The translations under genes were made by a program, and so were the position numbers. A stretch of DNA of 21,989 bases from a virus, in the IMG/VR virus record IMGVR_UViG_3300032516_007493, positions 1 to 21,989 of that record. One strand, given 5' to 3'. Below, one piece after another: positions 1 through 15,962 of this stretch. Each line of letters starts with the position of its first letter. Position 1 is the stretch's first letter. A model generated the notes under the pieces. It saw nothing but the letters and a program-made list of their open reading frames with translations, searched no databases and had not been told where the DNA came from.

Positions 1-20
1 AGCTTTCGCTGCCGCCATGA
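1..20 (-). repeat. Partial CATGGCGG structured element (E0), cut by the window edge
   Basis: On the minus strand this reads TCATGGCGGCAGCGAAAGCT, starting about 27 nt after the stop of the deoxyribosyltransferase-like gene. It matches the 5' end of element E1 (minus strand from 640) at 18 of 20 positions. The two differences, A for G and T for C, keep the pairing of an AGC-GAAA-GCT hairpin where E1 has GGC-GAAA-GCC. The rest of the element lies outside the window. Confidence 0.5.
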
Positions 21-46
21 TCTGCTTTCTTCCAAAACAAATAACA

Positions 47-529: not shown

Positions 530-563
530 GACCGATCTCCCTTGATTTGTTCTGTATAAAGTA

Positions 564-639
564 CATGGCGGGCCGAGCGGTGGCAATTGATCTTGATCCC
601 CCGGCGGTTATTCCCCCTCCGGCTTTCGCCGCCGCCATG
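564..639. repeat. Element E1, bounded by CATGGCGG / CCGCCATG
   Basis: 76 bp. The ends are perfect 8-bp inverted repeats. On the minus strand it begins TCATGGCGGCGGCGAAAGCC, shared with E0, and ends GCCCGCCATG, shared with E3. Confidence 0.5.
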
Positions 640-773
640 AGTTTTGTGCGGAGAGACAGGGTTTTTCCTGTAAATGTTCACCACGTTCGGGGGTTCGCGC
701 TTTTGTGAACACGGTAATCCTCCCCTACCGCTGCCTTTAACTCGACCACTCTCCGCATTGACAATCCAATGTT

Positions 774-843
774 CATGGCGGACCGGATTAGCCGACCGTC
801 TTGGGTTTGACAATCAATTCGTCCGCGTGACGTCGCCGCCATG
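774..843. repeat. Element E2, bounded by CATGGCGG / CCGCCATG
   Basis: 70 bp with perfect 8-bp inverted ends and an inner 6-bp inverted repeat GCGGAC/GTCCGC partly overlapping the end box. It lies just 13 nt downstream of the SSB stop. Confidence 0.5.
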
Positions 844-855
844 ACGATAGCTCAT

Positions 856-2070
856 CTACAGCTTCCTACGTCCTCCAGTCCGGTCTCCCGTCTCTTTCTC
901 AGGCTCGGACCTTGGGGCTGGTCTGATAGGCCGACGGGAAGATTGTGCCTTTCTACGTTCTGTCTCAATCTCATCAGCCTTCTCACCACAGGCATCATAC
1001 TTTTCTGTCACACAGTCTTTACAATCCTCAGGGAACTGGTCAATATCGACCCCAAACTCGTGACCTCGCGGACAATCTCCTTCAACCTTACTCGCCTCTT
1101 GTGCAGACTCTGCCCTACGACCCCTCTGTGGTAGACGCCCCAGGTCTTCCTTCGGCTGTTCCCTCTCGGGAGTATCCTCTCTCCTTAACCTGGAAGACCG
1201 CTCCTCAGGCTCCTCCGCATTCAGTACCTCAGAATCCCTTCCCCTGCCCAGACCCTCGGACTTTGCACTGGCGAAAAAGGCATCGTGAATCTCAGCATAG
1301 GAAGGGACATAAACAATCTCATCCAGGCAATAAACAGAGTCCAAGGTGCCATCGTCAATATCGTAATCCCGATCCTCAAACGCATAACCAGAATAGCTGG
1401 TATTGGTTTTGCCCGTCCCTGTCCGCGTAAACTGAATGGTCTTTCCCAACTCCTTCTCTGGTAGAGCGAAATGCACTTCTCCCCCACCTCGCGCCTTGTG
1501 GGATATAGCTTGGATCTCTTTTTCAAACTGGTAATGGGATACCGGCCACACCTGAATGCCCTTGTCCTGCTCACCCTTGTCGTAGCAGATAATATTGTAA
1601 AGACAGTATCGAGTGGGACGCAGTGGGGATATCACCTTCTGGTAATACTCCTCTGCCGTAATACCCGGAGGATTGCCCTCCTCAATCATCTGCTGGCGCT
1701 TCTCACAAATTGGACAATCCCCATACAACCGATGTCCTACATGATACGTAGTCAAGGGACAAACGAAATCTTGATCCGCTGGACCAATGAACCTATGCAG
1801 ATATCCCTCCCACCGATAATCTGGCTTCCCGGGCTTGACCTTCGGGTCTGGATGTAACCCCCGCTTGTCCTTGTCATCCTTCCCTGCTACGTTGGTCATG
1901 TACGGAATGATGTCCAGCAAGTGCAAGCCCTCTCCCGCCCACCAGGTGAGAATTCCCAGTTCCGGCTTCAGAACGGAAGATGCCCGGCTACCTCCTCGAT
2001 CCTTAGTAGCGTAGGACTCCCGACCTCGGTTCATCAACTCCTCTGCCATACTTTTACGATCATACTTCAT
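856..2070 (-). CDS. gp32-like single-stranded DNA-binding protein
   Basis: 404 aa. The layout fits the T4 gp32-like SSB family of phages, which coats single-stranded DNA at the replication fork. An N-terminal basic region is followed by a metal-binding cluster (C104, H110, H113, C119, C122, in DFVCPLTTYH...GDCPICEK), then an OB-like part with YCLYNIICYDKG and QVWPVSHYQFEKEI, and GKTIQFTRTGTGKTNTSYSGY. The tail is long, highly charged and low in complexity. A second Cys-rich patch (CPRGHEFGVDIDQFPEDCKDC, about residues 333-353) is not expected in gp32. The tail ends in basic Arg/Lys residues rather than the purely acidic end typical of gp32. The ATG has GGGAG 6 nt upstream, and the gene overlaps the preceding membrane-protein gene by 11 nt. 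Confidence 0.8.
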   Translation of the reverse strand: MKYDRKSMAEELMNRGRESYATKDRGGSRASSVLKPELGILTWWAGEGLHLLDIIPYMTNVAGKDDKDKRGLHPDPKVKPGKPDYRWEGYLHRFIGPADQDFVCPLTTYHVGHRLYGDCPICEKRQQMIEEGNPPGITAEEYYQKVISPLRPTRYCLYNIICYDKGEQDKGIQVWPVSHYQFEKEIQAISHKARGGGEVHFALPEKELGKTIQFTRTGTGKTNTSYSGYAFEDRDYDIDDGTLDSVYCLDEIVYVPSYAEIHDAFFASAKSEGLGRGRDSEVLNAEEPEERSSRLRREDTPEREQPKEDLGRLPQRGRRAESAQEASKVEGDCPRGHEFGVDIDQFPEDCKDCVTEKYDACGEKADEIETERRKAQSSRRPIRPAPRSEPEKETGDRTGGRRKL

Positions 2071-2326
2071 TTTTTCTCCCTTCTTTTCCTTTTAGATTTG
2101 TTCCCACTTCAACACTCTCTTTGCTGGTCCTATCATTCTCGTCCTCTTTTGGTTTCTCCTTTCTGTAAAATTCTTCCCTCACATGGAACCATGAGCGAGC
2201 CGCCCCGAACGAAGCTATTCGGACAAACACGTAGCCCAAGAGCAGAGCAGCCACAATGCCTGCCAGGACTTCCAGCAATCGAATTAAAATAGTTCCAAAC
2301 CATACCACTTCGTTCGGCATTGCCAT
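2060..2326 (-). CDS. Small single-pass membrane protein, unknown function
   Basis: 88 aa. One strong membrane segment at about residues 9-36 (WFGTILIRLLEVLAGIVAAL and on through VFVRIA) is followed by a charged, Lys/Glu-rich tail, probably cytoplasmic. Two in-frame ATGs (2326 and 2320) are possible: GGAAGG is 8 nt before the first and AAGGGG 7 nt before the second. It lies 5 nt after the PEP-CTERM gene and its end overlaps the SSB start, so the three are probably one transcript. I do not recognise a family. Confidence 0.6.
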   Translation of the reverse strand: MAMPNEVVWFGTILIRLLEVLAGIVAALLLGYVFVRIASFGAARSWFHVREEFYRKEKPKEDENDRTSKESVEVGTNLKGKEGRKNEV

Positions 2327-2331
2327 TCCCC

Positions 2332-2556
2332 TTACCTTCCCCGTCGCTTCCAGCCCAGCCCTATTGATACCAAACCAACTGCGAGAAGAGAGATTGTGAC
2401 GGGCTCAGGTACTTGCGTCGGTCTCGGCTCGGCAGAATGCGTTGGTCGAAGCAACTGTAACGAGATCTGATCATCGGCATAACCTGTAACAGCACCAAAG
2501 GAAGCCACCAAAACCATGCAGCATACAACCAGAAGAACCGTTCCTTTTCTTTTCAT
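2332..2556 (-). CDS. Small secreted protein with a PEP-CTERM sorting signal
   Basis: 74 aa. The N-terminus is a signal peptide: MKRK, a hydrophobic run (VLLVVCCMVLVASFGAV) and a likely cleavage site before GYADD. The C-terminus is VPEPVTISLLAVGLVSIGLG followed by WKRRGR, which is the classic PEP-CTERM layout of Pro-Glu-Pro, hydrophobic helix and basic cluster. Such tails are recognised by exosortase in Gram-negative bacteria, usually for export of surface or biofilm proteins. Only about 25 residues lie between the two signals, so the mature product would be very short. AAGGAGGGG lies just before the ATG. A phage-borne PEP-CTERM protein is unexpected. The motif is clear; the role is unknown. 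Confidence 0.75.
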   Translation of the reverse strand: MKRKGTVLLVVCCMVLVASFGAVTGYADDQISLQLLRPTHSAEPRPTQVPEPVTISLLAVGLVSIGLGWKRRGR

Positions 2557-2576
2557 ATTCCCCTCCTTTCAAATTA

Positions 2577-2734
2577 GCATGGCGGGCTTACTCGCGGCTT
2601 CACGGGAGTTACTCTTCCTCCACCGCTTTCGGCCATCTCCCGCTCCTCGAAGTCCCCGAGGCGGGGAAACTTCAGCCTGGGATTTATGGGAGCGCTCGAT
2701 GATGGGTCTTATCTTATGCCCACCGCCGCCATGC
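2577..2734. repeat. Element E3, bounded by GCATGGCGG / CCGCCATGC, with internal hairpins
   Basis: 158 bp with perfect 9-bp inverted ends (2577-2585, 2726-2734). Inside are a compound hairpin, GAAGT-CCCCG (2649-2658) with CGGGG-aa-ACTTC (2662-2673), and CGCTCC/GGAGCG (2641-2646, 2689-2694), which nest. It fills the gap between the coiled-coil gene stop (2742) and the PEP-CTERM gene ribosome-binding site. On the minus strand it also holds CCGAAAGCGG and a GCCCGCCATG end like E1. Confidence 0.55.
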
Positions 2735-2741
2735 TTTACCA

Positions 2742-3236
2742 TCACAACTTCCTCTTCAACCGAGGACTCCTCTCCAATCCCTTAACCTGTTCCTCGTGCC
2801 GAGCTTCCAAAGATAACTCCCTGGCCTTTTCCGGCACATACGGCTTAGCATAATACCCGGCCAGGAATAACTGGGTCAAATTCTCCAAGGACCGCTTCCT
2901 CTGATCCAGGGCCTTAACCATCGCGTCCAAGACCTTCGCATCAGTAACCATGTCCAGATAGTCACGCTCGGCCTTCTGCACTTCTTCACTCAGAACCACC
3001 TGGCCCTTGACCGCCGACTCCGTAATTTTATCAATTCCATGGCCGTTCGGATCTTTCCGAATGGTATCCTCCACCTCAGCCCTGACGGTGTCCAGACGAA
3101 CCATAGCTAAGTCCCGATTGCTCTGCGCATCAATCGCCTTCATGGCAGCCTTCAGAAACTTAATGGACTGCTCTTCCCATTCCTCATCCAAAGACATCTT
3201 ATCGATCTTCAATTCCTTAACAAAATCTCTTTCCAT
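2742..3236 (-). CDS. Helical coiled-coil protein, candidate recombination or replication accessory
   Basis: 164 aa, almost entirely charged and helical with a long predicted coiled coil (about residues 20-135, for example SEEVQKAERDYLDMVTDAK). The middle pattern, TESAVKGQVVLSEEVQKAE, then KALDQRKRSLENLTQLFLAG, resembles small helical phage proteins that sit beside SSB or RecA-like genes. The T4 mediator UvsY is of similar size, but I see no diagnostic motif, so that is only a suggestion. The ATG is preceded by AGGGAGG. A promoter (-10 at 3255-3260) lies directly upstream, so this is the first gene of the 3236-47 transcript, right after the polymerase terminator. Confidence 0.6.
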   Translation of the reverse strand: MERDFVKELKIDKMSLDEEWEEQSIKFLKAAMKAIDAQSNRDLAMVRLDTVRAEVEDTIRKDPNGHGIDKITESAVKGQVVLSEEVQKAERDYLDMVTDAKVLDAMVKALDQRKRSLENLTQLFLAGYYAKPYVPEKARELSLEARHEEQVKGLERSPRLKRKL

Positions 3237-3254
3237 AAATCCCTCCCTATTTTT

Positions 3255-3282
3255 ATTATAGCTCCGTTTCCCGAATTCCCCT
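3255..3282 (-). promoter_or_regulatory. Promoter P1, AGGGG-N17-TATAAT
   Basis: On the minus strand AGGGG (3282-3278) stands 17 nt before TATAAT (3260-3255). Transcription would start near 3248 and read the coiled-coil gene. The spacer shares AAACGGAG next to the -10 with P4. Confidence 0.6.
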
Positions 3283-3300
3283 TTTATGATCCTGCGAGAG

Positions 3301-3325
3301 AAAACCCCGACCCTTGTGGTCGGGG
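3301..3325 (-). terminator. Rho-independent terminator after the polymerase gene
   Basis: A perfect 8-bp stem CCCCGACC/GGTCGGGG (3305-3312, 3318-3325) with a 5-nt loop is followed on the minus strand by TTTTCTCTC. It begins 8 nt after the polymerase stop codon and separates that operon from P1. Confidence 0.85.
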
Positions 3326-3332
3326 TAGTTGA

Positions 3333-6300
3333 CTACAGTCCTGCCAGATTTCTTAACCTATCACAGAACACATCCAAAGCATCATCAAGCATAGGCTCAT
3401 TTTCTCTATGGTATAAAACAGATGCCGGATGCATGCTCCAGCATATCCAGCATTTATATTCCTCATTCCATTCAACAGTAGCATTCAAGCTACTGATTCC
3501 AGAATCAAGATCCTTGAAAAACTTAACGCAAGTATTACCAAACGCCAAAATAATTAAAGGATCAAGCCTGAGCAACTCTTCTCTAAGCCACTTGCCACAC
3601 ATGTGTATATGCTTCTTAGCAGGAGTCTTTGTAGAAGCCGGAAAACAGTTATGGGAGACTACAGAATTGGCAATATAAGATTCATCTCCCTCCACCCCAA
3701 AATTGTACAGCCTCTTAGTGACATAGTTAGTAACTTCTTTCACACTTACCACCTCGACATCAACAAAACTATACTCGCGCCTGTGATTCCTCAATACACG
3801 AGAAACCTCCCCAACGCAAGCGAAAACATCTTTCTTTATCTCCTCATCTGTAAAATGCAGCACTGTGAATCCGAGACCAGATAAAATAGAATCTCTACGC
3901 TGGTCTCCCTTTTTGCTGTTCTCCCTACTATGCCAGAACACCCCATCACATTCCACAATAACCCTATCATCTTCAAATAGAATATCAGGATAATAACCTT
4001 GTATGTACTTGTTCTGTTTGAAATCGCTAAAACCACACTTCCTCAATGCCCATGCCATGATTGATTCTATCTTGGTACCTTTATTCTTTGGGCGAATGAT
4101 ACGATCATGATTACTATAATATCCATCAAGAGCTCTCCTACCAATTTCAGGTAGCCTGCTAAATAGACCAGGTTTTTTGTTAGTTCTATAAGATTTTTCA
4201 GTTGCCTCCTTAATCCTTTCATCGCTATATTTATCAAGTCCCTTCCAAGGATGGGTAAATGTCCTATTCCCCTTCTGCAAATGAAATGTCCCCTTAGACA
4301 CCTCTTCTCTCGTTTTATCGTTAGCTCTCCTTGCAATACTGCTTCTATCCAGCACACCACTTCTATAAAGCTCTTTCATAGATTTTGACTTTTTGTCCAA
4401 GGACTCCTGAGACCAACTCCTATTTTTATTACTATATGCCGCCGAGCAAGAACGATCGCAAAAATCAATACGAGAGCAAGAAGGTATATTATTCCCACAG
4501 TTCAAGCATCCTTTAGCCAAGACCCTCAGCCCATCTCCAGGCTTTATATTTCTCGCGGCAACCCACTTGCCTCCAACCAGAAAAGGATGCTCTGGAGTAA
4601 CCACGACAGACTTGGTGCATTTGCTGTTAAAAGAAATACGATACTTAATCTTCACAAGTTTCTCTCCTCTAAGCATTTTCTCATGGGGACGAACCCAAAT
4701 TACCTTACTAAATTTACCTTTATGAGATAGCACAATATCTCCCACCAGGATATCGCAAATTTTTTTGGGCCCCTTAGATGTATAAATCTCAACATTAGGA
4801 TCCACAAAACACTTGACAACGTTAGTCACATGAAACAATTCTCTTTTATGTCCCCTCTTTGCTAACTTTTCCCAAAGCATAGCACCTGTCTTTCCGACAA
4901 ACCCGACTCCTTTTCTGTTCTCTTCCGATCCGGGCGCTTCCCCACATATAGCCACATTGTACTTGCCAAAACTTGGCAGAACCACCTGTCTGGCCTCGCT
5001 ACGCAAATCGCACATATCACAAGCCACAAGAGAGAATTGATCCCCAGCATCTCTTACAAATCTTCTCTCTGCCAAACACAACCCCAAACCCGCAATATTT
5101 CCAGAAAGCAAATCCTCCTCCATCCATACCTCTTTGCAAAATATATTGGTTGCTCTTGTTGGTCTGTCAGCTTTGATTATCATCCACTTACCACTACAAT
5201 GCTCTATTTCCGACTTTTTTGATGCATACAAATCAGGAGAGAACACAATCATAGAAAATCCAGTATCATCTGCTATGTTTCCATACACACCACCAAGCGC
5301 ATCAGATGTGCCAGAAGCCCCCAACCTTTTGGCAAGAGTATCAAGTTTTCCTCTGTAGCCAAACTTAATCTCTGTCATTCTGCCAAAGTAATACCTAAGA
5401 TCCTTGAATACCTCATATCCAGAAAGCTCTACCAGCTTAGAAAATTTCAAGCCATTGCCAAGCTTATCCAGCATGTATCTAAACTTTCGCATAGGATCTT
5501 TATCAAGAGAAAAGTCAAAATACTTTTCAGATATCCTTCTAAGCTCCTCGCTGGACACTTCAGCATCTATAGGCTCCATAACCCCTACATCTGCCAATAT
5601 ATTTGCTACCTTGCCTTTCATCCTGGCAGACGCTTTCTTCTCAAAAAACCCGTTACCAGAACCTCCACGCTCTGCCATAATACCATCAATATAACCCTCT
5701 ACAGCTTCGACAGTTTTGTCCCCTAATCCCCTTATCTCTATATATGGGACATAGAGTTTACCATCGTGCACAGCCCATTCCTTGGATTTTGATATGCCAG
5801 CAGTTGGCCTACAGACATCAATTCCCATACGGAAAGCCTCTTCAACCAAATCCGACTTTTTATTATCAGATCCCCAAGAAAGGCTTGCTGCCATAAATTC
5901 AAGTGGGTGATGAATCTTACAATTATGGACAACCACACCATTTGCCAAGAAATTATGCGCTGGCTCATCCATAACCAGATCGTAAACAGGACAATCCTTC
6001 CAATAGTCTATGCTAACTATCTGCTCATATATGATTTGCCTTCCGCACACAGCCTCTTTTGCCTCAAGCAAGAAAGATAAATTATCATCCAAATCGTCTC
6101 CAGGCTTCAAAACCAGCAAAGGTTCGTCACCAAACTTTTCCTCAAAGTAAATGTCTTCTCTTCCAACCCCATCATACTCAATATACACACCACCAACCAA
6201 GAAATCAGCAAACTTTCTTCCTATCAATATCTCCTTGTCATGCTTTAATCCGTGAGAAGTAAGCCATTCATCAACCAGCAATTCTCCTTTGGAAAACACC

Positions 6301-7922
6301 CTATGCCCATCTGAAGCTCTGCCAACAAATCTATTGCTATAATAACCATTTTTTGACCTACTTGCAGTCAGAATCCAATTATTAAACATCCTTGCTCGTT
6401 TTTCTTCACTTGCATTTTTCCACCTATCTTTCGCCATATTACTTCTATGCTCGTGATCTCCTGCAAGTATGCCACTAACATTTCTACAAGGCTTGGTTCT
6501 ATCTTTTCTATATTTTGTCCCCTTACTCCTCCAAAAAGATTTCAGAGAAGCTCTCACTTTCAAGGACCATGATGAGTTATGTGGTGTTACTCTTTTCTCT
6601 GCTGCCACAAAATCACCAACCCGCAAATCTGACAGTTTCTTATATCCATCAGGAGTAAGTATTTTATGTTCCATGGTACAATACAGCCTCTTGGCAGACT
6701 TCAGCCTCACAGCATACACAGGCTTCTTACCCTTGAACTTGTCCCCTGTCTTAATTATTCTCAATACACGATTAGGTCTCGTAGAGCCGTCTGGAAACAT
6801 AGATATAGTATTAACTATTCCTTCCCTATATGCCTTAGCTACCGTAATATATGCATTTCTATCGCAATCCCATATCATTGTCCTTCCAGCAACACACCAC
6901 ATATCCCACATCGAGATCAGAGAATATTCCACGCTGTGTGACAAATTGAACGAATAACTACCAAAAGAGGCCAACTCGTCCCACATTTCTCCTGCTGTCT
7001 TCTCATCAAGAGTTTTCCTCTCCTTGCACCCCTCAACGAACATCTCCCTGAATTTGAGGAACTGCTCGACACCCTTGGACTTGCTTATAACTTTGCGGAC
7101 AGTATCTGCAGTTCTCCAACCCAATCCGCCCAATTCATACATAAACCTCATAACCTGTTCCTGATAGAGTATGATGCCAAATGTGCTCTTAGTTATTTCC
7201 TCAATGAAAGGGTGTTTATACACAACCTGCTTTTCGCCCTTCTTCCTGAGAATGAACTCTGTCGTTGCCCCCGATCTGAGCGTTCCTGGTCTATGCAGAG
7301 CATTTGCAGCCACAAGCAAATCGAAATTTTCTATTCCCATTTCCTGGCACAGCTTACGCAAGCCAAGAGAGGAAAACTGGAAACACCCTATGTTATTTCC
7401 ATTACTAAACTCTGCAAACACAGCCCCATCATCCAGTGGAAGAGAAATAAAATCTATAGGAATTCCCGAAGACTTTTCCACAAGCTTGGACGTCTCGTGC
7501 AATATAGTCAGAGCATTGAGACCAAGAACATCCAGCTTCATAAGCCCCATATACTCTGCATCCTCCTTGTCCCAATTAACAAGCACCTCCTCTTTAGATC
7601 TGGTTACAAGAGCAGCATTAAGTCCATCATATAGACTGTCTTTAGAAACAACTATTCCGGCCGCATGCTGCCCAGAACCTCTAACCTGTCCCTCAAGTTT
7701 AACACAAGCCTCCGCTGCTTCTGGGTATTTCCTTCTAAATTCCTTAGCGTCTTCAAAAACATCCATAGCATCCTGGGCTGAAAATGAACTGCGAAAATCT
7801 CCTCCAGAATTATGGGTTTGTATACCATTCGCCAAATATCCCTTCCATCTGCCTTTGATAGACAAATCATAAGACTTTCTCTTTCCTACAGAAGAAATAG
7901 ACCTAATTCGTTCGAACTGCAT
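3333..7922 (-). CDS. dnaE: DNA polymerase III alpha, C-terminal part, fused to family 4 uracil-DNA glycosylase; carries IntC and two inteins
   Basis: 1529 aa from the ATG at 7922, which has AAGGAG 7 nt upstream. Order of parts: residues 1-38 C-terminal intein half; 39-342 polymerase palm and fingers, including KLDVLGLNALT (about 130), which carries the third catalytic Asp, and the conserved FNLSHSVEYSLIS; 343-667 intein 2; 668 to about 955 rest of fingers, helix-hairpin-helix-like LGDKTVEAVEGY and an OB-like fold; about 960-1037 and 1426-1529 a family 4-type uracil-DNA glycosylase split by intein 3 (GEAPG, FVGKTG, MHPASVL; Cys 968, 971, 1426 and 1442 as Fe-S ligands). After splicing the extein is about 778 aa. 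The polymerase N-terminal part is the next gene upstream. Ends at a strong terminator. Confidence 0.9.
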   Translation of the reverse strand: MQFERIRSISSVGKRKSYDLSIKGRWKGYLANGIQTHNSGGDFRSSFSAQDAMDVFEDAKEFRRKYPEAAEACVKLEGQVRGSGQHAAGIVVSKDSLYDGLNAALVTRSKEEVLVNWDKEDAEYMGLMKLDVLGLNALTILHETSKLVEKSSGIPIDFISLPLDDGAVFAEFSNGNNIGCFQFSSLGLRKLCQEMGIENFDLLVAANALHRPGTLRSGATTEFILRKKGEKQVVYKHPFIEEITKSTFGIILYQEQVMRFMYELGGLGWRTADTVRKVISKSKGVEQFLKFREMFVEGCKERKTLDEKTAGEMWDELASFGSYSFNLSHSVEYSLISMWDMWCVAGRTMIWDCDRNAYITVAKAYREGIVNTISMFPDGSTRPNRVLRIIKTGDKFKGKKPVYAVRLKSAKRLYCTMEHKILTPDGYKKLSDLRVGDFVAAEKRVTPHNSSWSLKVRASLKSFWRSKGTKYRKDRTKPCRNVSGILAGDHEHRSNMAKDRWKNASEEKRARMFNNWILTASRSKNGYYSNRFVGRASDGHRVFSKGELLVDEWLTSHGLKHDKEILIGRKFADFLVGGVYIEYDGVGREDIYFEEKFGDEPLLVLKPGDDLDDNLSFLLEAKEAVCGRQIIYEQIVSIDYWKDCPVYDLVMDEPAHNFLANGVVVHNCKIHHPLEFMAASLSWGSDNKKSDLVEEAFRMGIDVCRPTAGISKSKEWAVHDGKLYVPYIEIRGLGDKTVEAVEGYIDGIMAERGGSGNGFFEKKASARMKGKVANILADVGVMEPIDAEVSSEELRRISEKYFDFSLDKDPMRKFRYMLDKLGNGLKFSKLVELSGYEVFKDLRYYFGRMTEIKFGYRGKLDTLAKRLGASGTSDALGGVYGNIADDTGFSMIVFSPDLYASKKSEIEHCSGKWMIIKADRPTRATNIFCKEVWMEEDLLSGNIAGLGLCLAERRFVRDAGDQFSLVACDMCDLRSEARQVVLPSFGKYNVAICGEAPGSEENRKGVGFVGKTGAMLWEKLAKRGHKRELFHVTNVVKCFVDPNVEIYTSKGPKKICDILVGDIVLSHKGKFSKVIWVRPHEKMLRGEKLVKIKYRISFNSKCTKSVVVTPEHPFLVGGKWVAARNIKPGDGLRVLAKGCLNCGNNIPSCSRIDFCDRSCSAAYSNKNRSWSQESLDKKSKSMKELYRSGVLDRSSIARRANDKTREEVSKGTFHLQKGNRTFTHPWKGLDKYSDERIKEATEKSYRTNKKPGLFSRLPEIGRRALDGYYSNHDRIIRPKNKGTKIESIMAWALRKCGFSDFKQNKYIQGYYPDILFEDDRVIVECDGVFWHSRENSKKGDQRRDSILSGLGFTVLHFTDEEIKKDVFACVGEVSRVLRNHRREYSFVDVEVVSVKEVTNYVTKRLYNFGVEGDESYIANSVVSHNCFPASTKTPAKKHIHMCGKWLREELLRLDPLIILAFGNTCVKFFKDLDSGISSLNATVEWNEEYKCWICWSMHPASVLYHRENEPMLDDALDVFCDRLRNLAGL
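3648..4811 (-). mobile_element. Intein 3, in the uracil-DNA glycosylase domain, with Vsr-like endonuclease
   Basis: 388 aa (residues 1038-1425 of the host ORF). It starts with Cys (CFVDPNVEIYTSKGPKK, block A), has SVVVTPEHPF (block B, the TxxH) and ends SYIANSVVSHN followed by extein Cys (blocks F/G). In the middle are a Cys4 zinc finger (CLNCG...FCDRSC), and a PD-(D/E)XK Vsr-type nuclease segment: KIESIMAWALRKCG, YYPDILFEDDRVIVECDGVF, WH, and RRDSILSGLGFTVLHF. All expected acidic residues are present, so splicing and homing activity both look intact. Confidence 0.85.
5922..6896 (-). mobile_element. Intein 2, in the polymerase fingers region, with Vsr-like endonuclease
   Basis: 325 aa (residues 343-667 of the host ORF). 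It begins CVAGRTMIWDCDRNAY and ends AHNFLANGVVVHN, with extein Cys (CKIHHPLEF) next. Block B is RLYCTMEHKILTPDGY; block F is VYDLVMDEPAHNFLANG. The nuclease region has SKGELLVDEWLTSHGL, KFADFLVGGVYIEYDG, as in Vsr-type homing endonucleases, rather than LAGLIDADG motifs. The site follows WDMW in the conserved stretch FNLSHSVEYSLISMWDMW | CKIHHPLEFMAA, a part of the polymerase fingers conserved in bacterial DnaE. Confidence 0.85.
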
Positions 7923-8644
7923 TGATAGTCTCCTTAATTCTATTGAGTACAATACCTCTGTCGCTAAACTCTCTGTGAGAGAACCTAACAACAGACCATC
8001 CTATACTAATAAGATATTTATCCCTAGCTGCATCTTTCGCGCACAAATGCTTGTGCAGCTGACCATCATATTCAAAATCTATTTTTAGCTCTGGCTCTCT
8101 GTTTCTCCTTGAACGAGGCCATCTTAACTGGATCTATATGCCACCGACATCCCTTACCCTTCTTGGATCTCTTCATCTTCTCCAGATTAACCGAATTTCT
8201 CAACGGATTATCGTGCAAATTCTTATATATAGCAAGACAAGACAAACTACAGAAACTTCGATCTCTATTCCTCTTTCTATATATTATCTTACCACATTGC
8301 TTACAATGGGAATAAACTTCGCAATGCTCATACGTAAGTATCTTGTCTGTGGGCTTCAAATCTCTCAGCTTACGCCACCCTACATTGCTATATATTTTCC
8401 CATTATAAATATGAGAATATTTGGACCAGAATTTATGCTCTGCTGAACAAATAATTTTCTTACCAGATTCCAGAGTCATCTCAAACATGTCCATATCTGG
8501 ATTCACGAAAACTTGCTCAACCTCCCTTGTTTCTCTCCTACTACCATGTCCATGACAAGATACTCTAAAACCAGAAGATCCCGCCAAATCCCTAATAGCC
8601 TTTGGTCCTTCGACTGTGTACACCATGCTGTCCCCATCCAAACA
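7809..8644 (-). mobile_element. Intein 1, split between two ORFs (IntN 8644-8072, IntC 7922-7809)
   Basis: IntN starts at Cys464 of the upstream ORF (CLDGDSMVYTVEGPKAIRD, block A), includes GKKIICSAEHKFWS (block B) and WRKLRDLKPTDKILTY, and runs through a zinc finger (CKQCGK...FCSLSC) to a stop at 8072. IntC begins at its own ATG (7922) with a good ribosome-binding site, and is 38 aa long: YDLSIKGRWKGYLANGIQTHN with the key His-Asn, then extein Ser. A 35-40 aa IntC starting at Met is the usual size of natural split inteins. Between them lies a Vsr-like nuclease fragment in a third frame. Protein splicing in trans would join polymerase residues 1-463 to the downstream extein. Confidence 0.8.
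7903..8133 (-). pseudogene. Out-of-frame C-terminal half of a Vsr-like homing endonuclease inside split intein 1
   Basis: In the frame +1 to the upstream ORF the DNA encodes LRWPRSRRNREPELKIDF, EYDGQLHKH, AARDKYLISIGWSVVRF, and so on to NAVRTN and a stop at 7903. EYDG, RD and GWSVVRF match the conserved core of Vsr-type (EDxHD) endonucleases and the same segments of intein 3. No ATG, GTG or TTG precedes the core in this frame, so it could only be made by a +1 shift from the upstream ORF around 8075-8130, whose own frame encodes the matching zinc finger. The simplest reading is a decayed endonuclease. Its end overlaps the IntC start by 20 nt. Confidence 0.65.
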
Positions 8645-10033
8645 CCGTACTACAACCGCCTTAGCAGCCTTATCTGAATCGATCATAGGAACATCATAAA
8701 CCCTTGCCACATCCCTTATAGCCGAGCGGCCCTTCAGTTTAGAAAATGTAGATATGCCAGCTACACATTCTTGTCCATACAGATCCTCCAAATGCTTTCT
8801 AATTCGTGGGCGATGTATGTCCTCAAAATCCATATCTATATCTGGTATATCTATACGAGCCGGGGAAATAAAACGAGAGAACAGAAGACCAAACTTAATT
8901 GGATCTACCTGTGTTATGCCAAGCAGATATGATACCAAACTTCCACCAGAGCTTCCCCTACCCGGCCCCACCATTATATCATTGTTCCTACACCAGCTAA
9001 TCAGTTCCCATACTATTAGAAAATATCTGATAAATCCTTGTCCAGAAATAGAGTTTATCTCCTCCTCATAGCGAGACTGATAATCTGAAAAATTATCCCT
9101 CTCTCCAAAATATAGCTTTAATTTTTCAGCACACAATTTTCTGATAAAATTATCCTCTTCCCCAGAGGGTATTCCTGGAACATTAGGAAGATAAACAGAG
9201 ATCTTTTCTATCCTAAAATTGGAACAAAGCTCTGCCAAAGAAATAGAATTATACACAGCCTGCTCAGAAAGCTTGCTGTCCACTACACCCTGCTGACGCA
9301 AAGCAGTTAACATCTCCCTACCAGATTTTAAGTATAGATTCTTAGCTTCAAATCTACGACGATTAGTATCTGACAGCTTATATTTTCCACCTATACATAG
9401 AAGAGCCTCGTGTATATCATCTTCTCCCTGCAAAACATAATGGCAATCATTCGTAGCCAACAAAGGGAGTCCATACTTTCTATGGAGAAGAACCTTATAC
9501 TCATTCACAGCTTTTTGAGGCTCAAACCCAACCAGAGGAATTATCTCAAGAAACACCTCTGTCCTATCAGAAAGCTCAGTCAGCAGGTCCTCTCCCCAAT
9601 CTTGGAAAAGAAAAGAAGATGAGCAAGCTGTAGAAATGGCCAATCCATCGCAATGGGCAAGAAGAAACTCCGGATCAAAACGAGGTTTGTAATAGAAACC
9701 TTCTATATTGGCATAGGTCAGAATCTTCTTGATATTCACCCATCCCTTCTCATTCTTGACAAACAGAACTATGTGGGAACGCTTTTCCCCCTTCTGCTTA
9801 TCTTTGGCATCAAGAACGATATATCCCTCACATCCTATAATGGACTTAACACCAGCTTCCTCACAGGCCTGCTGGAACTTGATTACACCATCTATATTGC
9901 CATGGTTAGTTATGGCAATATACCTCTGCTCCAACTCCTTAGCACGAACCGCATATTTAGCACCAGACCCCAAACCATCAAGTATGCTATATTCATCATG
10001 AACGTGCATATTGCAATAATAGTCCTCTGGCAT
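8072..10033 (-). CDS. dnaE: DNA polymerase III alpha, N-terminal part, with N-terminal half of a split intein
   Basis: 653 aa. Residues 1 to about 205 are the PHP domain (NMHVHDEYSILDGL, GCEGYI, SHIVLFVKN, ISTACSSS, ATNDCHYV). The usual TDHxN motif reads TNHGN, so one PHP metal ligand is Asn. The polymerase palm follows with MVGPGRGSSGGSLVSYLLGI and the catalytic PDIDMDF at about 396-400. Cys464 starts IntN (190 aa, to the stop). The extein therefore contributes 463 residues. The ATG has AGGAGA 6 nt upstream, and the upstream HAD gene stops 10 nt before it. Cellular-type family C replicases are known in some phages. Without trans-splicing or reassociation the two halves would each lack part of the active site. 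Confidence 0.9.
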   Translation of the reverse strand: MPEDYYCNMHVHDEYSILDGLGSGAKYAVRAKELEQRYIAITNHGNIDGVIKFQQACEEAGVKSIIGCEGYIVLDAKDKQKGEKRSHIVLFVKNEKGWVNIKKILTYANIEGFYYKPRFDPEFLLAHCDGLAISTACSSSFLFQDWGEDLLTELSDRTEVFLEIIPLVGFEPQKAVNEYKVLLHRKYGLPLLATNDCHYVLQGEDDIHEALLCIGGKYKLSDTNRRRFEAKNLYLKSGREMLTALRQQGVVDSKLSEQAVYNSISLAELCSNFRIEKISVYLPNVPGIPSGEEDNFIRKLCAEKLKLYFGERDNFSDYQSRYEEEINSISGQGFIRYFLIVWELISWCRNNDIMVGPGRGSSGGSLVSYLLGITQVDPIKFGLLFSRFISPARIDIPDIDMDFEDIHRPRIRKHLEDLYGQECVAGISTFSKLKGRSAIRDVARVYDVPMIDSDKAAKAVVVRCLDGDSMVYTVEGPKAIRDLAGSSGFRVSCHGHGSRRETREVEQVFVNPDMDMFEMTLESGKKIICSAEHKFWSKYSHIYNGKIYSNVGWRKLRDLKPTDKILTYEHCEVYSHCKQCGKIIYRKRNRDRSFCSLSCLAIYKNLHDNPLRNSVNLEKMKRSKKGKGCRWHIDPVKMASFKEKQRARAKNRF

Positions 10034-10042
10034 CGTCTTCTC

Positions 10043-10423
10043 CTATAACTTCCTAAACCAAGGAACAAAAGACTGTACCCTATCAACAGCAATGCCCCAA
10101 TCCCCTTCAAACACAACAGCCCTATCATCAAGATATACATCTGCCAAGGGCTTGCACAGACTACATCCCTGGTCTATGTTCTCCTCATTGAAATTTATAG
10201 CATCAAATGGAATACCCTTAGACACCAGATATTCCTTAACCTGATCTGTTTCAGATCTCGTCGTGAACACAATAATTTTCCAGCCACTATTCTTTAGTCT
10301 CTGCAGGCCAGCAATAGCACCATCAACTGGCTCCCCAAAGACCCCCTTACCTCTCCAGATGTCATATTTGGCAATCACTGCATCAAAATCAACACAGACC
10401 GTATGAACAGAACATCCCATCAT
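10043..10423 (-). CDS. HAD-superfamily phosphatase-like protein
   Basis: 126 aa. A small HAD-like fold: VDFDAV near the N-terminus (D12 and D14 as nucleophile and acid/base pair), GLQRLKNSGWKIIVFTTRSE (motif II region, Thr/Ser) and ADVYLDDRAVVFEGDW at the C-terminus (motif IV acidic pair). It has no cap domain, so it probably acts on a large substrate or a nucleotide. Substrate not identifiable; nucleotide phosphatase is a guess from context. The ATG overlaps the stop of the SDR gene in ATGA, and the stop lies in the ribosome-binding region of the polymerase gene, so it is in the same operon. Confidence 0.7.
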   Translation of the reverse strand: MMGCSVHTVCVDFDAVIAKYDIWRGKGVFGEPVDGAIAGLQRLKNSGWKIIVFTTRSETDQVKEYLVSKGIPFDAINFNEENIDQGCSLCKPLADVYLDDRAVVFEGDWGIAVDRVQSFVPWFRKL

Positions 10424-11148
10424 TGACCTCCAGAAGAATCGATAACAGTCCCATTAACATAATCCGGCAAGTCCAACACCTTAACCACAAGATCCGCTAT
10501 CTCTGCTATATCAGTAAACCTGCCCATAGGTATATTCTTCAATGCATACCTAATAGCGTCCTCTTCCTTCCATCCTCTAATCTCAAGCACCTGACTATCA
10601 GTAAGCTCAGTCATCCTGGTCCCTTCTATCTTACCAGGAGCAACTGCATTAATCACCCAGCCAAAAGGAGCCAATTCTCTGGCCATCACCTTAGTCATCT
10701 GCACCAGACCGGCCTTAGATGCACAATAAAGAGATGTGCATCTTTGTGCCACCCTATACACCTGAGATGCCACATTTACAACTCTGCACACACAGCCATG
10801 CTCGCGTACAAAATTAACGACCCAATAGGGAACCATCAGGTTCGCCAATATGATCTGTTCATCTTCCTTTGGAGTATCACCTATCCAGGATAGATGGTTA
10901 ATACCATAATTATTTATAATAGCGGATATCCTAATTCCAGACGTGACGGGATTAAGATCGTATTTGTTAAATAGAACATCATCTACAAAGCCCTTCAAAA
11001 ACTCATACAGAACATCATCTTCTATTGCCTGGCGTATTTCTCTACCAGGTATATTATGCATGCAATGCCCTGCATCAGCAAGCCTATCATATATTGCAAG
11101 GCCCAATCCCTGCTCTCCTCCTGTAATGAGAACATTACATGGATTCAT
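10420..11148 (-). CDS. Short-chain dehydrogenase/reductase (SDR)
   Basis: 242 aa, the usual SDR length. It has the cofactor loop ITGGEQGLGLAI (about residues 8-19), INNYG in place of the common NNAG, catalytic Ser in NVASQVYRV, the catalytic pair Y141xxxK145 in SLYCASKAGLVQMTK and the NAVAPGKI segment. It would be an NAD(P)-dependent oxidoreductase; the substrate is unknown. I chose the ATG at 11148 because AGGAG lies 7 nt upstream and the fold starts there; extending to 11295 would add an unrelated hydrophobic stretch overlapping the upstream gene. It overlaps the upstream gene by 14 nt. SDRs are not usual in phage replication operons. Confidence 0.85.
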   Translation of the reverse strand: MNPCNVLITGGEQGLGLAIYDRLADAGHCMHNIPGREIRQAIEDDVLYEFLKGFVDDVLFNKYDLNPVTSGIRISAIINNYGINHLSWIGDTPKEDEQIILANLMVPYWVVNFVREHGCVCRVVNVASQVYRVAQRCTSLYCASKAGLVQMTKVMARELAPFGWVINAVAPGKIEGTRMTELTDSQVLEIRGWKEEDAIRYALKNIPMGRFTDIAEIADLVVKVLDLPDYVNGTVIDSSGGQ

Positions 11149-11440
11149 CTTTGGACTCCTCATCCATTTCCTGCAGCATACATGCATACGTTCTAAGATC
11201 CCTGAGAGAATCGATACCATCTCCAGGAAATAGAAACCTTGCAGAATACCTGACAAGCTTAACCACCACGAGATCCAAAAGAGCAAACCTACCAAAATCC
11301 TCCGAAGTTTTAAGAGTCAAACCTGCAGGAAACAGGGATCGCATAACATCACCATGCTTTTTATAACCAGAACCGTACAACTCATTCCTATCCTTGAAAA
11401 CAGATATATCCCCTCCTAATATATCAATCACCCTAGACAT
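11135..11440 (-). CDS. Nmad1/DUF1599-like small helical protein
   Basis: 101 aa. The pattern FKDRNELYGSGY, LDLVVVKLVRYSARF, then DGIDSLRDLRTYACML resembles the nucleotide-modification-associated domain 1 family (Nmad1, DUF1599) and MazG-like helical proteins: a D..YG motif, a K..R helix and a final D..rDL..YA helix. These occur in phages near base-modification genes, but their reaction is not established to my knowledge. The ATG has AAGGAGG 9 nt upstream. The stop overlaps the SDR start by 14 nt. Confidence 0.5.
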   Translation of the reverse strand: MSRVIDILGGDISVFKDRNELYGSGYKKHGDVMRSLFPAGLTLKTSEDFGRFALLDLVVVKLVRYSARFLFPGDGIDSLRDLRTYACMLQEMDEESKDESM

Positions 11441-11515
11441 CCAACACTACCTCCTTAAATTAACCACAGAACCATAGGTTATCTCCCCATAAGCGGGGTT
11501 ATTACAAGACAGAGC
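11441..11515. other. Short gap with CCCC/GGGG hairpin
   Basis: A 75-nt gap holding CCCC-N6-GGGG (11485-11498) and the ribosome-binding site of the next gene. On the minus strand no T-run follows the hairpin, so it is not a convincing terminator. Confidence 0.3.
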
Positions 11516-12307
11516 CTAACTTACTACTTGCCCCCCAATAAGACCAGTTATCTCCTTGGCTCTCTTTGCAGAATCCATAGCTGCAGAAACCACATAAACA
11601 CTAACCGCAATTCTATCGATTCCAAGATCTTTAGCTATAGCAAAAGCCATATTGCGAGGAGAATATACATCCTGAAGAAAATGAGACCACATAACATGCT
11701 TCATGATCCAGCCAACCAATAATCTTTCTTCTTCTGGAATCCAGCGAAAAAATATATTAGTACAACAGAACTTAGCTGCACGGGCCGTCTTTATCTGCTT
11801 AGGATTCCTAATTAGTTCTTCCCAAATCCATTCTGCAGGCACCAAATCGAAATAGAAATTGGGATGAGATCTAAATCTTCTGTTACAAAATCTATCCAGG
11901 AAATATTGCATAAAACTCTTGCCACTTGCAAGAGGCCTGCACAGAGAAGAAAAGAAACTGTGGTCAGAATCCTTACCATACTTGCCCATATGGTATTTAG
12001 ATCTCCCCAATTTATCCACCAAGGCCCATAGATCCTCCCCCAAATCAGAATATAGAGATACTGGGAACCCAGATTCCAATAACCAATCACTCCATGGCAC
12101 TTCCACCCCATACTTAAAAGCTGTGCGATCATACCAGACCTTATCAAATGCTTGAATAAGTTTACGATCCTGATCATCGTTCCACAAAGCAGACTCGGTA
12201 GGTACACAGTCCACATTATAGTTGACGGACTCTCCGTAAACCCTTGACTTGAGAAGTCTGCTGGTGATAGACAAGAAAGATTCGCTGGCAGACACAAAAT
12301 GGCTCAT
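11516..12307 (-). CDS. Unknown 263-aa protein, possibly distantly related to helix-hairpin-helix glycosylase-like families
   Basis: 263 aa, soluble and rich in Trp, Tyr and Phe. Visible features: LGEDLWALVDKLG, CRPLASGKSFMQYFLDRF, and a C-terminal part FCCTNIFFRWIPEEERLLVG ending in AIAKDLGIDRI...AKRAKEITGL. That last layout (FFRW, then LGI, then A.eiT.l) reminds me of the TIGR02757/DUF2400 family, but this is an impression by eye. The ATG overlaps the last base of the ThyX stop (TAATG), so the two are translationally coupled and probably work in one pathway. It could be a nucleotide- or base-modifying enzyme. I do not assign a function. Confidence 0.6.
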   Translation of the reverse strand: MSHFVSASESFLSITSRLLKSRVYGESVNYNVDCVPTESALWNDDQDRKLIQAFDKVWYDRTAFKYGVEVPWSDWLLESGFPVSLYSDLGEDLWALVDKLGRSKYHMGKYGKDSDHSFFSSLCRPLASGKSFMQYFLDRFCNRRFRSHPNFYFDLVPAEWIWEELIRNPKQIKTARAAKFCCTNIFFRWIPEEERLLVGWIMKHVMWSHFLQDVYSPRNMAFAIAKDLGIDRIAVSVYVVSAAMDSAKRAKEITGLIGGQVVS

Positions 12308-13065
12308 TATTTTACCAAAGGTTGAAAATCAGTTCCAGAGACTTCTTCCCAGGTCTTCCTAGCCTGCTCATAAGGCCATTTATTTCTCCTCCTATCAAGA
12401 GAAGGAACCGAAGTTATCAGAGGACAATCCGGGAAATTCTCCCATTGGCAAGATGCATACACCAAGCAATATGGCAATAACATATTATCCAACCATGGGT
12501 GAACTTCCAATATTTTATCCCTAATAGCCTTTGCCACCACTTGAAATTCACCTTGTGCCCTCAAACACAGCCTAACTCCAAGAATATGGATTATGGTACG
12601 CAAATTAGCACAGAATAATATGTTGGTCAATATATTTGTTGGCAACACTCCCCTGGCATCCTGTACGCTTATTCCCTCCTCCAGAAGCTTCTGGTAGTAA
12701 ATCTGAATATTATCCATGCAAGAGCGATAAGATTCGCTATCCCTGCAGCCTCCTGTAGCCAAATACTCAAAGCCATCCATAGAAGCAACCCTTTGAGCTT
12801 GCTGAGCATAACTAATACCTGTACGATGCCTAACAAGCTGATGTGTAAAGGCTCTGGTAACTCCTGTCAGGAGTAAGGTATAATTGACGAACTCCCAAGA
12901 CGAGCCAACAGTGCTAAACACATACGACAGTTCCTTTATCTTTTCTTCTTCGCTTAGGCTAATCACATCCTGCCAAGCCATAGCGTTCCTAAGCTGTCTG
13001 GTCCTTTTGGCAAGAATCAGAATTTCCCGGGCCCTGTCTGTATAATTAACCAAGGTAACTTGCAT
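12307..13065 (-). CDS. thyX: Flavin-dependent thymidylate synthase family protein (ThyX-like)
   Basis: 252 aa. It carries the ThyX signature region HQLVRHRTGISYAQQAQRV (R79-H80-R81) and the later LPTNILTNILFCANLRTIIH and HILGVRLCLRAQGEFQ segments that form the nucleotide site. ThyX methylates dUMP to dTMP with FAD and methylene-tetrahydrofolate. The usual RHR-x7-S motif is altered: counting from RHR, the residue at the usual Ser place is Gln and the aligned place in QAQR is Ala, with one extra residue before SYAQ. Related phage enzymes can hydroxymethylate dUMP instead, so the product here is open. The ATG has AGGGAG upstream; its start overlaps the FAD-enzyme gene by 20 nt. Confidence 0.85.
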   Translation of the reverse strand: MQVTLVNYTDRAREILILAKRTRQLRNAMAWQDVISLSEEEKIKELSYVFSTVGSSWEFVNYTLLLTGVTRAFTHQLVRHRTGISYAQQAQRVASMDGFEYLATGGCRDSESYRSCMDNIQIYYQKLLEEGISVQDARGVLPTNILTNILFCANLRTIIHILGVRLCLRAQGEFQVVAKAIRDKILEVHPWLDNMLLPYCLVYASCQWENFPDCPLITSVPSLDRRRNKWPYEQARKTWEEVSGTDFQPLVK

Positions 13066-14017
13066 ATTCTCTCCCTATAGCAGTAAGTCTCATGAGTTTA
13101 GAAACATGCCTCAAATCAAGCACCAAATCATCTGATCTGACCTGCTTCCAGATTGCATACCTGCCAATAGAATAGATATCAAATTCTCTCGTCAAACACA
13201 TAATCATGTTTTTTCTATCATCGTCCCTGGTGGAATAGAGCTTGCCCAACTCCTGTCTATGTCTTTTCAAATTTTCTACATCAGGCAAGAACAGACCAAA
13301 ATTTCCCAAAATAGATTCCAATTCGTCAGATCCCAGTTCTGACAAAGATTCTATGATAATGTGTTTGCCTTCCAGGGTAGCTCTGTAAGCGGAATGGTCT
13401 CTATCAGGATAATAGATAGTTTGATGAAGGCTGGAACTAAAACCCAACTCTCCCGACACAGTATAGATAGGTACATACCCAAACTCGGATTCTGAGTTGT
13501 CCTTAAACACCATAGGTTTAACAAGCTTCGCAAGGTAAATGATGGGGATAGTACTTATGCACATATCATATTCAACTACACAGTCAGGATTCTCCGAATT
13601 AGCTGTAGAAAAATACAGCTTGCCTTTTGTCACCGCAATAAGACTAAATCCATAGTTGAACCTATTGTTTGGCATCTCCTCCGAGCAGATAACATACCGC
13701 TTTACCCGCCCAAGCTCTCCAAGCGATCTTGCAGACAAGCCATCAGACACCTTCCTGGAATAAAGGTTATTAGCTCTTATACTACATTCATCCGTCAGGT
13801 TACCATCCATCATCACTTGCTTATGAACAGTAACCTGCTCTATCTGTACTCCAAGCAACATGCCTGCATATGGCTCCTTAAATCTCATCACAGCCTTATG
13901 TTCCGACAAGAAGGATCTACTCTCTTCCTTTCTATCAAACACCACAGGAGATAAACCACGAAAAAAACCATACGCCATATGTCCTGAAAGTCCCGCTCCC
14001 AATATGACAAGTTTCAC
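13046..14017 (-). CDS. FAD/NAD(P)-binding oxidoreductase
   Basis: 323 aa. The N-terminus KLVILGAGLSGHMAYGFFRG is a Rossmann dinucleotide-binding motif (GAGLSG, residues 7-12), followed by VVFDRKEE with an acidic residue at the end of strand 2, as for FAD or NAD ribose binding. YDMCISTIPIIYL matches the second conserved strand-to-loop of FAD amine oxidase-like or UDP-galactopyranose-mutase-like proteins, and RYAIWKQVRSDDLVLDL resembles the C-terminal FAD contact region. Substrate unknown. The start is GTG at 14017, with AAGGAG 6 nt upstream. First gene of the 14017-10043 block, with its end inside the ThyX start. Such enzymes occur in phage thymidine hypermodification clusters, which is the basis for the pathway idea. 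Confidence 0.75.
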   Translation of the reverse strand: MKLVILGAGLSGHMAYGFFRGLSPVVFDRKEESRSFLSEHKAVMRFKEPYAGMLLGVQIEQVTVHKQVMMDGNLTDECSIRANNLYSRKVSDGLSARSLGELGRVKRYVICSEEMPNNRFNYGFSLIAVTKGKLYFSTANSENPDCVVEYDMCISTIPIIYLAKLVKPMVFKDNSESEFGYVPIYTVSGELGFSSSLHQTIYYPDRDHSAYRATLEGKHIIIESLSELGSDELESILGNFGLFLPDVENLKRHRQELGKLYSTRDDDRKNMIMCLTREFDIYSIGRYAIWKQVRSDDLVLDLRHVSKLMRLTAIGREYASYLG

Positions 14018-14052
14018 CTACTTCTCCTTCCAGATAGATCAAATGAAGAGAC

Positions 14053-14092
14053 AAATGGCAACCGAAGCAGCAGACACATTCGGTTGCCATTT
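14053..14092 (-). terminator. 14-bp perfect hairpin between winged-helix and FAD-enzyme genes
   Basis: AAATGGCAACCGAA (14053-14066) and TTCGGTTGCCATTT (14079-14092) pair perfectly over a 12-nt loop. On the minus strand a weak pyrimidine run (GTCTCTTC) follows. It lies after the winged-helix stop and before the FAD-enzyme ribosome-binding site: terminator, attenuator or processing site. Confidence 0.6.
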
Positions 14093-14115
14093 TCCCTCGC
14101 CATCAAACAGATATA

Positions 14116-14137
14116 ATGCCAATTAGCTACTTGGCAT
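14116..14137. repeat. Hairpin over the stop codon of the winged-helix gene
   Basis: ATGCCAA (14116-14122) and TTGGCAT (14131-14137) pair over an 8-nt loop that includes the TAG stop at 14127-14129. It is followed by the larger hairpin at 14053-14092. Confidence 0.4.
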
Positions 14138-14690
14138 CAGCGGAGATAAAGTACCTTCCTTCCTTCTTGGAAGCGAAACCATCCCGAACCAGTTCGCCAA
14201 GAATATGCTTTGCCCTTCCCTCCGGATTGGAAGATACAATATCGATATTGCCCACCAAACCAGCAGCAGAAAGACCAGACTTGCCGGACACGTACAGAGC
14301 CTCGTAGATCCTCCTAGCCCCACTACCCTCTCTGTAGGGCAGACCATCAGGCTCCTTCTTGGCCTTGGGCTCCTTGGCCTTGGGCTCCTTCTTGGCCTTG
14401 GGCTCCTTCGCAGGCTTGGTAGTAACCTCACTCTCCTTCGACTGAGACAACTTGTCCTGATGACGAGCCTCCTCCTCGTCCACCAGGGCATTCTGCACTG
14501 TGACCAACAGCTTGTAATCCACCGGCACCCTCTTCTCGATGGACTTCAGCACGCCCTCGTCCAGATCCTCGATGGACTTCAGGAACGTGGCCTCCAACGC
14601 GTCCTGCTTCAGGAAAAAGGAAATCTTCTTGTCCTTGGGCAGCAGCTCATTCACTATCTTGATTGCAGCCAATACTTGCTTCCGATCCAT
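14127..14690 (-). CDS. Lys-rich winged-helix DNA-binding protein
   Basis: 187 aa from the ATG at 14690 (AAGGAGG 7 nt upstream; an in-frame start at 14741 lacks a site). Residues 1 to about 85 are helical and charged. About 85-115 is a Lys/Pro/Ala low-complexity tract with repeated KEPKAK units, like the tails of histone H1 or of some bacterial nucleoid proteins. The C-terminus (about 120-187) looks like a winged helix: GARRIYEALYVSGKSGLSAA, then AKHILGELVRDGFASKKEGR and YFIS as wing. It may package, silence or regulate phage DNA. Its own promoter P2 and a downstream hairpin make it a single-gene unit. Confidence 0.65.
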   Translation of the reverse strand: MDRKQVLAAIKIVNELLPKDKKISFFLKQDALEATFLKSIEDLDEGVLKSIEKRVPVDYKLLVTVQNALVDEEEARHQDKLSQSKESEVTTKPAKEPKAKKEPKAKEPKAKKEPDGLPYREGSGARRIYEALYVSGKSGLSAAGLVGNIDIVSSNPEGRAKHILGELVRDGFASKKEGRYFISADAK

Positions 14691-14751
14691 CTTTCTTCCT
14701 CCTTGACAAATACGTTTTGGTTTAGGAATTCTTACTACCAACTCTAATTCT

Positions 14752-14779
14752 ATTATAACCCTTTTTCTTCAACTCCCCT
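14752..14779 (-). promoter_or_regulatory. Promoter P2, AGGGG-N17-TATAAT
   Basis: AGGGG (14779-14775) and TATAAT (14757-14752) on the minus strand, 17 nt apart, upstream of the Lys-rich winged-helix gene. The leader to its ATG is about 55 nt. Confidence 0.65.
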
Positions 14780-14825
14780 AAGAAAAGTTGCAAAAATTAC
14801 AAACCTTTTTACAATCCCCTTAGAA

Positions 14826-15859: not shown

Positions 15860-15871
15860 ACCTTCTCCTCT

Positions 15872-15946: not shown

Positions 15947-15962
15947 ATCTCCTCCTATACTT

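What the first reader, a model, noticed from the sequence alone, without database searches (positions are those of the whole stretch)
7809..8644. Split intein with a frameshifted Vsr-like endonuclease between the halves of a phage replicase gene
The polymerase is encoded in two ORFs that meet inside an intein. IntN runs into a zinc finger and stops; IntC restarts at an ATG with AAGGAG 7 nt upstream and is 38 aa long, the normal size of a natural IntC. A Vsr-type nuclease core sits between in a third frame. This matches the 'fractured gene' arrangement known for split inteins with Vsr-like homing enzymes, but here the nuclease looks caught in decay, suggesting how a contiguous intein becomes split. 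Seen: motifs, frames and ribosome-binding site. Inferred: trans-splicing.
Basis: partly seen in the sequence, partly recalled or inferred. Interest (0 to 1): 0.8.

Follow-up and report, generated by a model that had tools for sequence, protein, structure and literature searches.

The report
Split-intein phage polymerase with nuclease-less allele
A phage's DNA-copying enzyme is encoded in two pieces that a split protein-splicing element should stitch together; a near-identical phage sequence still carries the intact DNA-cutting gene that normally sits between the pieces, while this one has lost most of it.

Summary
A phage DnaE-type polymerase (minus strand) is broken into two ORFs inside an intein: IntN (Cys1 at 8644, then a zinc finger, stop at 8072) and IntC (ATG 7922, SD AAGGAG, 38 aa, ends HN|Ser). 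Intein-free relatives have the two exteins exactly abutting, so the borders are right. A second public contig is essentially identical over about 18 kb but carries 288 nt where the window has 107 nt. There IntN stops right after the zinc finger, and an intact 151-aa DUF559/EDxHD (Vsr-like) nuclease ORF overlaps the IntC start by 20 nt. That is the known 'fractured gene' arrangement. Hence the two frame changes are not assembly indels. The split is present where the nuclease is intact, so nuclease decay did not cause it. The window keeps only the last 63 codons, without a start codon and without the upstream catalytic part. Two further contiguous inteins lie in the same gene, which also carries a fused UDG domain. 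Trans-splicing is inferred. Unusual points: a homing-endonuclease zinc finger left on IntN, and a near-isogenic pair of alleles with and without the nuclease. A local chimera in the window is not excluded.

The parts
8645..10033 (-). N-extein of phage DnaE-type DNA polymerase III alpha (463 aa; PHP and NTPase/palm part)
   Evidence: Pfam PHP E=1.5e-29 and DNA_pol3_alpha E=9e-57; TIGR00594
8324..8644 (-). IntN splicing core (107 aa): Cys1, block A CLDGDSMVYT, block B CSAEH
   Evidence: TIGR01445 intein_Nterm E=6e-7, 30.3 bits against cut-off 24.5; empty site in relatives
8237..8305 (-). Zinc finger CKQCGKIIYRKRNRDRSFCSLSC on the IntN tail, a homing-endonuclease-type domain
   Evidence: PHROG HNH-endonuclease families 15471 (E=1e-3) and 1271 (E=1.7e-3)
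8096..8202 (-). Window-specific 107-nt block (NUMOD-like linker NPLRNSVNLEKMKRSKKGKGCRWHIDPVKMASFKEKQRA), replaced by 288 nt (nuclease start) in the sibling contig
   Evidence: close relatives not found in other IMG/VR or GTDB contigs
8072..8074 (-). TGA stop of ORF1 (IntN half)
7903..8094 (-). Remnant of DUF559/EDxHD (Vsr-like) nuclease ORF: last 63 of 151 codons, no start codon before the EYDG...H motif, stop TAG overlapping the IntC start
7930..7935 (-). Shine-Dalgarno AAGGAG, 7 nt before the IntC ATG
7809..7922 (-). IntC (38 aa), ATG start, ends ...NGIQTHN, +1 Ser
   Evidence: Pfam Intein_splicing 119-155; 50% identical to IntC of fractured uvsX in T4-like phages
6897..7808 (-). C-extein part 1 (304 aa; rest of NTPase domain and finger domain)
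5922..6896 (-). Second intein, contiguous (325 aa), with a degenerate-looking EYDG nuclease core
   Evidence: Pfam Intein_splicing; empty site in relatives
4812..5921 (-). C-extein part 2 (370 aa), running into the N-part of a family-4 UDG domain
3648..4811 (-). Third intein, contiguous (388 aa), zinc finger plus DUF559/Vsr nuclease, inserted in the UDG motif TNVVK|C
   Evidence: Pfam DUF559 E=2.8e-11, Vsr E=1.8e-7; empty site in relatives
3333..3647 (-). C-extein part 3 (104 aa; rest of UDG domain) and stop
   Evidence: Pfam UDG E=7e-20

Best explanation
This is a naturally split intein in a phage DnaE-UDG polymerase, a 'fractured gene'. ORF1 makes N-extein-IntN (with a zinc-finger tail) and ORF2 makes IntC-C-extein. 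The two halves associate and should trans-splice, joining ...VVR to SGGD... Two other inteins splice in cis, giving a 1241-aa enzyme. In the sibling allele a free-standing EDxHD/DUF559 homing endonuclease is encoded between the halves, translated from its own ATG (SD GAGGA) and overlapping the IntC start, and it would spread the element to empty sites. In the window allele the start and most of the catalytic core of that nuclease are gone, so the element is expected to splice but not to home by itself. Shown: ORFs, frames, domains, site borders, the two alleles. Inferred: trans-splicing, homing, and that the window allele is a real molecule.
For: Intein N- and C-half profiles. Exact empty sites in at least seven relatives. 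Two contigs with an identical IntC restart and identical flanks. Intact 151-aa nuclease ORF in the sibling, DUF559 E=1.8e-8, with D85, E96, D98, G99, H102 and R112 invariant across six homologues. Its AlphaFold2 model (pLDDT 76.8) matches the I-Bth0305I catalytic domain 3r3p and the endonuclease-like 3hrl with Foldseek probability 1.00. The IntC is 50% identical to that of uvsX in T4-like phages, where the order uvsX-IntN / homing endonuclease / IntC-uvsX with a 4-nt overlap is annotated. The window's long ORFs are uninterrupted (1552 aa in ORF2), so indel errors are rare.
Against: No splicing data. The usual block-F His is replaced (GRWKGYLANG), so splicing may be slow. Foldseek E-values are only about 3-5e-3. 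No reads were available to test the window block. The sample of the window contig is unknown.
Confidence: 0.85

Rival explanations
1. The split is real, but the window's 107-nt block is a local assembly or recombination-graph chimera with another intein variant. The true population carries only the intact-nuclease form.
For: The block occurs in no other contig searched. Everything else over about 18 kb is essentially identical to the sibling. The two contigs also diverge at a repeat-rich left end, where assemblers often mis-join.
Against: The block is shorter than a typical short read, so its junctions should have been seen within single reads (inference). It reads on in frame from the zinc finger in the style of homing-endonuclease linkers.
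Confidence: 0.35
2. An assembly indel in a contiguous intein: IntN, nuclease and IntC are really one frame.
For: Three frames meet within 300 nt. Contiguous inteins of the same make-up exist in the same gene.
Against: A second contig shows the same IntC frame and start with an intact, separately started nuclease ORF. In that contig several stops lie between IntN and IntC in their common frame.
Confidence: 0.03
3. A broken, non-functional polymerase gene (pseudogene).
For: The gene is in two ORFs, and the nuclease in the window is dead.
Against: Exteins are full length and collinear with intact relatives. Both halves keep intein catalytic residues and ribosome-binding sites.
Confidence: 0.05
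4. Ribosomal frameshifting produces a continuous intein with a working nuclease.
For: An A5 run lies at the junction (CTAAAAATAG).
Against: The shift needed is +1 at no recognised site; the nuclease would still lack its catalytic N-part, and a second shift would be needed to reach IntC.
Confidence: 0.02

Closest known systems
Fractured genes with split inteins and Vsr-like (EDxHD) homing endonucleases (Dassa et al. 2009, gkp095; not held here, cited in PMC12350094)
   Same: Host gene in two ORFs meeting inside a split intein, with a Vsr/EDxHD-type nuclease ORF between (sibling contig).
   Different: DnaE-UDG fusion host. IntN carries a homing-endonuclease zinc finger. One allele has lost the nuclease. 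Differences are stated against recalled features of the 2009 set.
Fractured uvsX in T4-like phages (Enterobacter vB_EclM-UFV01, Klebsiella Lion_ER11, Pseudomonas PspYZU05)
   Same: IntN / homing endonuclease / IntC order, overlap of the endonuclease stop with the IntC start, IntC 50% identical.
   Different: Different host gene. Endonuclease recalled as GIY-YIG-like from its sequence, not DUF559. IntN ends shortly after its core, with no zinc-finger tail.
Contiguous inteins with DUF559/Vsr nucleases in phage DnaE (intein 3 here; L003; L048)
   Same: Same nuclease family; intein 3 also has a zinc finger before the nuclease.
   Different: One continuous frame, other insertion sites.
Homing endonuclease I-Bth0305I (PDB 3r3p)
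   Same: Predicted fold of the sibling's nuclease.
   Different: Low sequence identity (15-16%).

Membership tests
Naturally split intein | IntN and IntC on separate ORFs with their own starts and stops | tested here: met
   the same IntC start in a second contig
Naturally split intein | Splicing motifs: Cys1, block B (S/T)xxH, C-terminal HN, +1 Ser/Thr/Cys | tested here: met
   C1, SAEH, THN|S; profile matches
Naturally split intein | Block F His | tested here: not met
   GRWKGYLANG against VEHYVLENG in uvsX IntC. By general knowledge this residue is not strictly required, so it is treated as non-defining
Naturally split intein | Precise insertion: exteins abut in intein-free relatives | tested here: met
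Naturally split intein | Trans-splicing activity | not testable with these tools
   needs co-expression
Fractured gene with EDxHD/Vsr-like homing endonuclease | Intact free-standing nuclease ORF between IntN and IntC | tested here: not met
   Window: only 63 of 151 codons, no start. Met in the sibling contig, so the locus belongs but the window allele is a degenerate member
Fractured gene with EDxHD/Vsr-like homing endonuclease | Nuclease belongs to the EDxHD/Vsr/DUF559 fold | tested here: met
   DUF559 E=1.8e-8; 3r3p match. Pfam Vsr itself did not match this ORF (it matched intein 3)
Fractured gene with EDxHD/Vsr-like homing endonuclease | Cleavage of the empty site | not testable with these tools
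   needs a cleavage assay

The most novel reading that the evidence does not exclude
A near-isogenic pair of phages catches a split intein just after losing its homing nuclease. The zinc finger left on IntN shows that a contiguous zinc-finger nuclease was itself cut in two when the gene fractured, so that in the intact allele the DNA-binding part is delivered by the IntN polypeptide and the catalytic part by a separate protein.
Probability: 0.25. Interest if true: 0.65.

Novelty: new variant of a known kind. Interest (0 to 1): 0.5.

Why it matters
How contiguous inteins become split, and what happens to the homing nuclease afterwards, is usually inferred from distant relatives. Here two alleles differ at essentially one place in the element, one with and one without the nuclease, in a gene that also holds two contiguous inteins with related nucleases. 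The pair allows a direct test of whether nuclease loss affects splicing and spread. The split intein itself could also be tested as a new trans-splicing pair.

Tried and rejected
Searched IMG/VR with the IntN half and with the nuclease, and GTDB genomes with the IntN half: apart from the sibling contig, no other copy of this split intein, and no source for the window-specific block. Looked for the block elsewhere in the window or sibling: longest shared exact word 13 nt. Tested whether block B or the sibling's block C is the more natural continuation of the zinc finger with PHROG profiles: both weakly, undecided. Rossellomorea phage phiT1 has a DnaE in two ORFs, but translation shows no intein there. 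Dassa 2009 could not be opened. Considered and dropped: ribosomal frameshifting, pseudogene, simple indel. The metagenome collection allowed no scans.

Full report
What is there. On the minus strand a DnaE-type polymerase gene is carried by two ORFs. ORF1 (10033-8072) has PHP and Pol III alpha domains and then an intein N-half starting at Cys 8644 (TIGR01445 E=6e-7, above its cut-off), a CxxC...CxxxC zinc finger that matches HNH-endonuclease profiles, and a stop at 8072. ORF2 starts at ATG 7922, with AAGGAG 7 nt upstream, with a 38-aa IntC ending THN|S. Between them, in a third frame, runs a Vsr-like core without a start codon. The finding does not mention that ORF2 contains two further contiguous inteins (5922-6896 and 3648-4811), the last inside a family-4 UDG domain fused to the polymerase.

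Borders. Relatives from IMG/VR without inteins have the flanking exteins exactly adjacent at all three sites, for example IVVR|SGGD, VNK|CWPS and YWDMY|MKIYH. The intein borders are therefore exact.

The sibling contig. IMGVR_UViG_3300032053_018290 matches the window from 622 to 18828 with one substitution outside the differing block and the ends of the match. The exception is one block: the window's 8096-8202 (107 nt) is replaced by 288 nt. In the sibling, IntN ends NPY* just after the zinc finger. A 151-aa ORF then starts at an ATG with GAGGA upstream and runs past the IntC ATG by 20 nt. That protein is DUF559 (E=1.8e-8). Residues D85, E96, D98, G99, H102 and R112 are invariant across six homologues. 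Its AlphaFold2 model (pLDDT 76.8) resembles the I-Bth0305I catalytic domain and an endonuclease-like protein (probability 1.00, E about 3-5e-3). The window retains only its last 63 codons, so it lacks the strand with D85 and everything before it.

What follows. Two contigs share the same IntC restart, so the split is not an assembly indel. That they are independent assemblies is an inference: one assembly would be expected to merge two contigs this alike. The split exists together with an intact nuclease, so nuclease decay did not cause it. The zinc finger on IntN, followed in the sibling by a separate nuclease, has the same domain order as the contiguous intein 3 and as the zinc-finger nuclease reading frame at locus L092. 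This suggests that a contiguous zinc-finger nuclease was broken when the gene fractured; that is inference. Which allele is older cannot be decided. The window block reads on in frame from the zinc finger, while the sibling block supplies the nuclease start; either could have lost or gained sequence, or both could derive from a longer ancestor.

Is the window block real? It was found in no other contig searched, and not elsewhere in either phage contig. Being shorter than a typical read, it is unlikely to have been stitched from distant pieces, but reads were not available. I put real allele at about 0.65 and local chimera at about 0.35. The split-intein conclusion does not depend on this.

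Known relatives. The arrangement matches annotated fractured uvsX genes of T4-like phages, whose IntC is 50% identical and overlaps the upstream homing-endonuclease stop by 4 nt. The EDxHD/Vsr nuclease family and the fractured-gene concept are those of Dassa et al. 2009, seen here only through citations. The locus is a member of that kind; the window allele fails the intact-nuclease criterion and is a degenerate member. The zinc-finger tail on IntN and the near-isogenic pair are the unusual points.

Caveats. The block-F His of the intein is replaced (see the membership test). Trans-splicing and homing are inferred.

Noticed in passing
window 3333-7991 and relatives L004-L090: The polymerase is a DnaE-family-4 UDG fusion; many intein-free phage relatives share the fusion. 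One intein sits in the UDG motif TNVVK|C.
   Followed up: partly
window 1-622 against sibling contig 1-1945: The two otherwise near-identical contigs carry different sequence at this end, bounded by repeated motifs such as GGCCCGCCATG and a run of GGCGGCGGCG.
   Followed up: partly
window 18712-18828: Tandem 15-nt repeats encode a (KSNDI)n stretch in the ORF 17757-19394; the sibling contig ends inside this repeat.
   Followed up: no
L094 4435-4557: A nuclease relative on a contig from the same sample as the sibling is also frame-broken, exactly before KIDFEYDG, at a poly-A run: independent decay or a sequencing error.
   Followed up: no
window 14826-15539 and 12307-13065: Radical-SAM protein (QueE-like by eye) and ThyX in the same operon-like block, suggesting a phage that may modify its DNA with 7-deazaguanines.
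   Followed up: no
L099 4001-7283 (Rossellomorea phage phiT1): DnaE annotated as two ORFs separated by a small unrelated ORF, with no intein seen.
   Followed up: partly
L048 6618-14909: A phage DnaE carrying at least five inteins in one 2809-aa frame.
   Followed up: no
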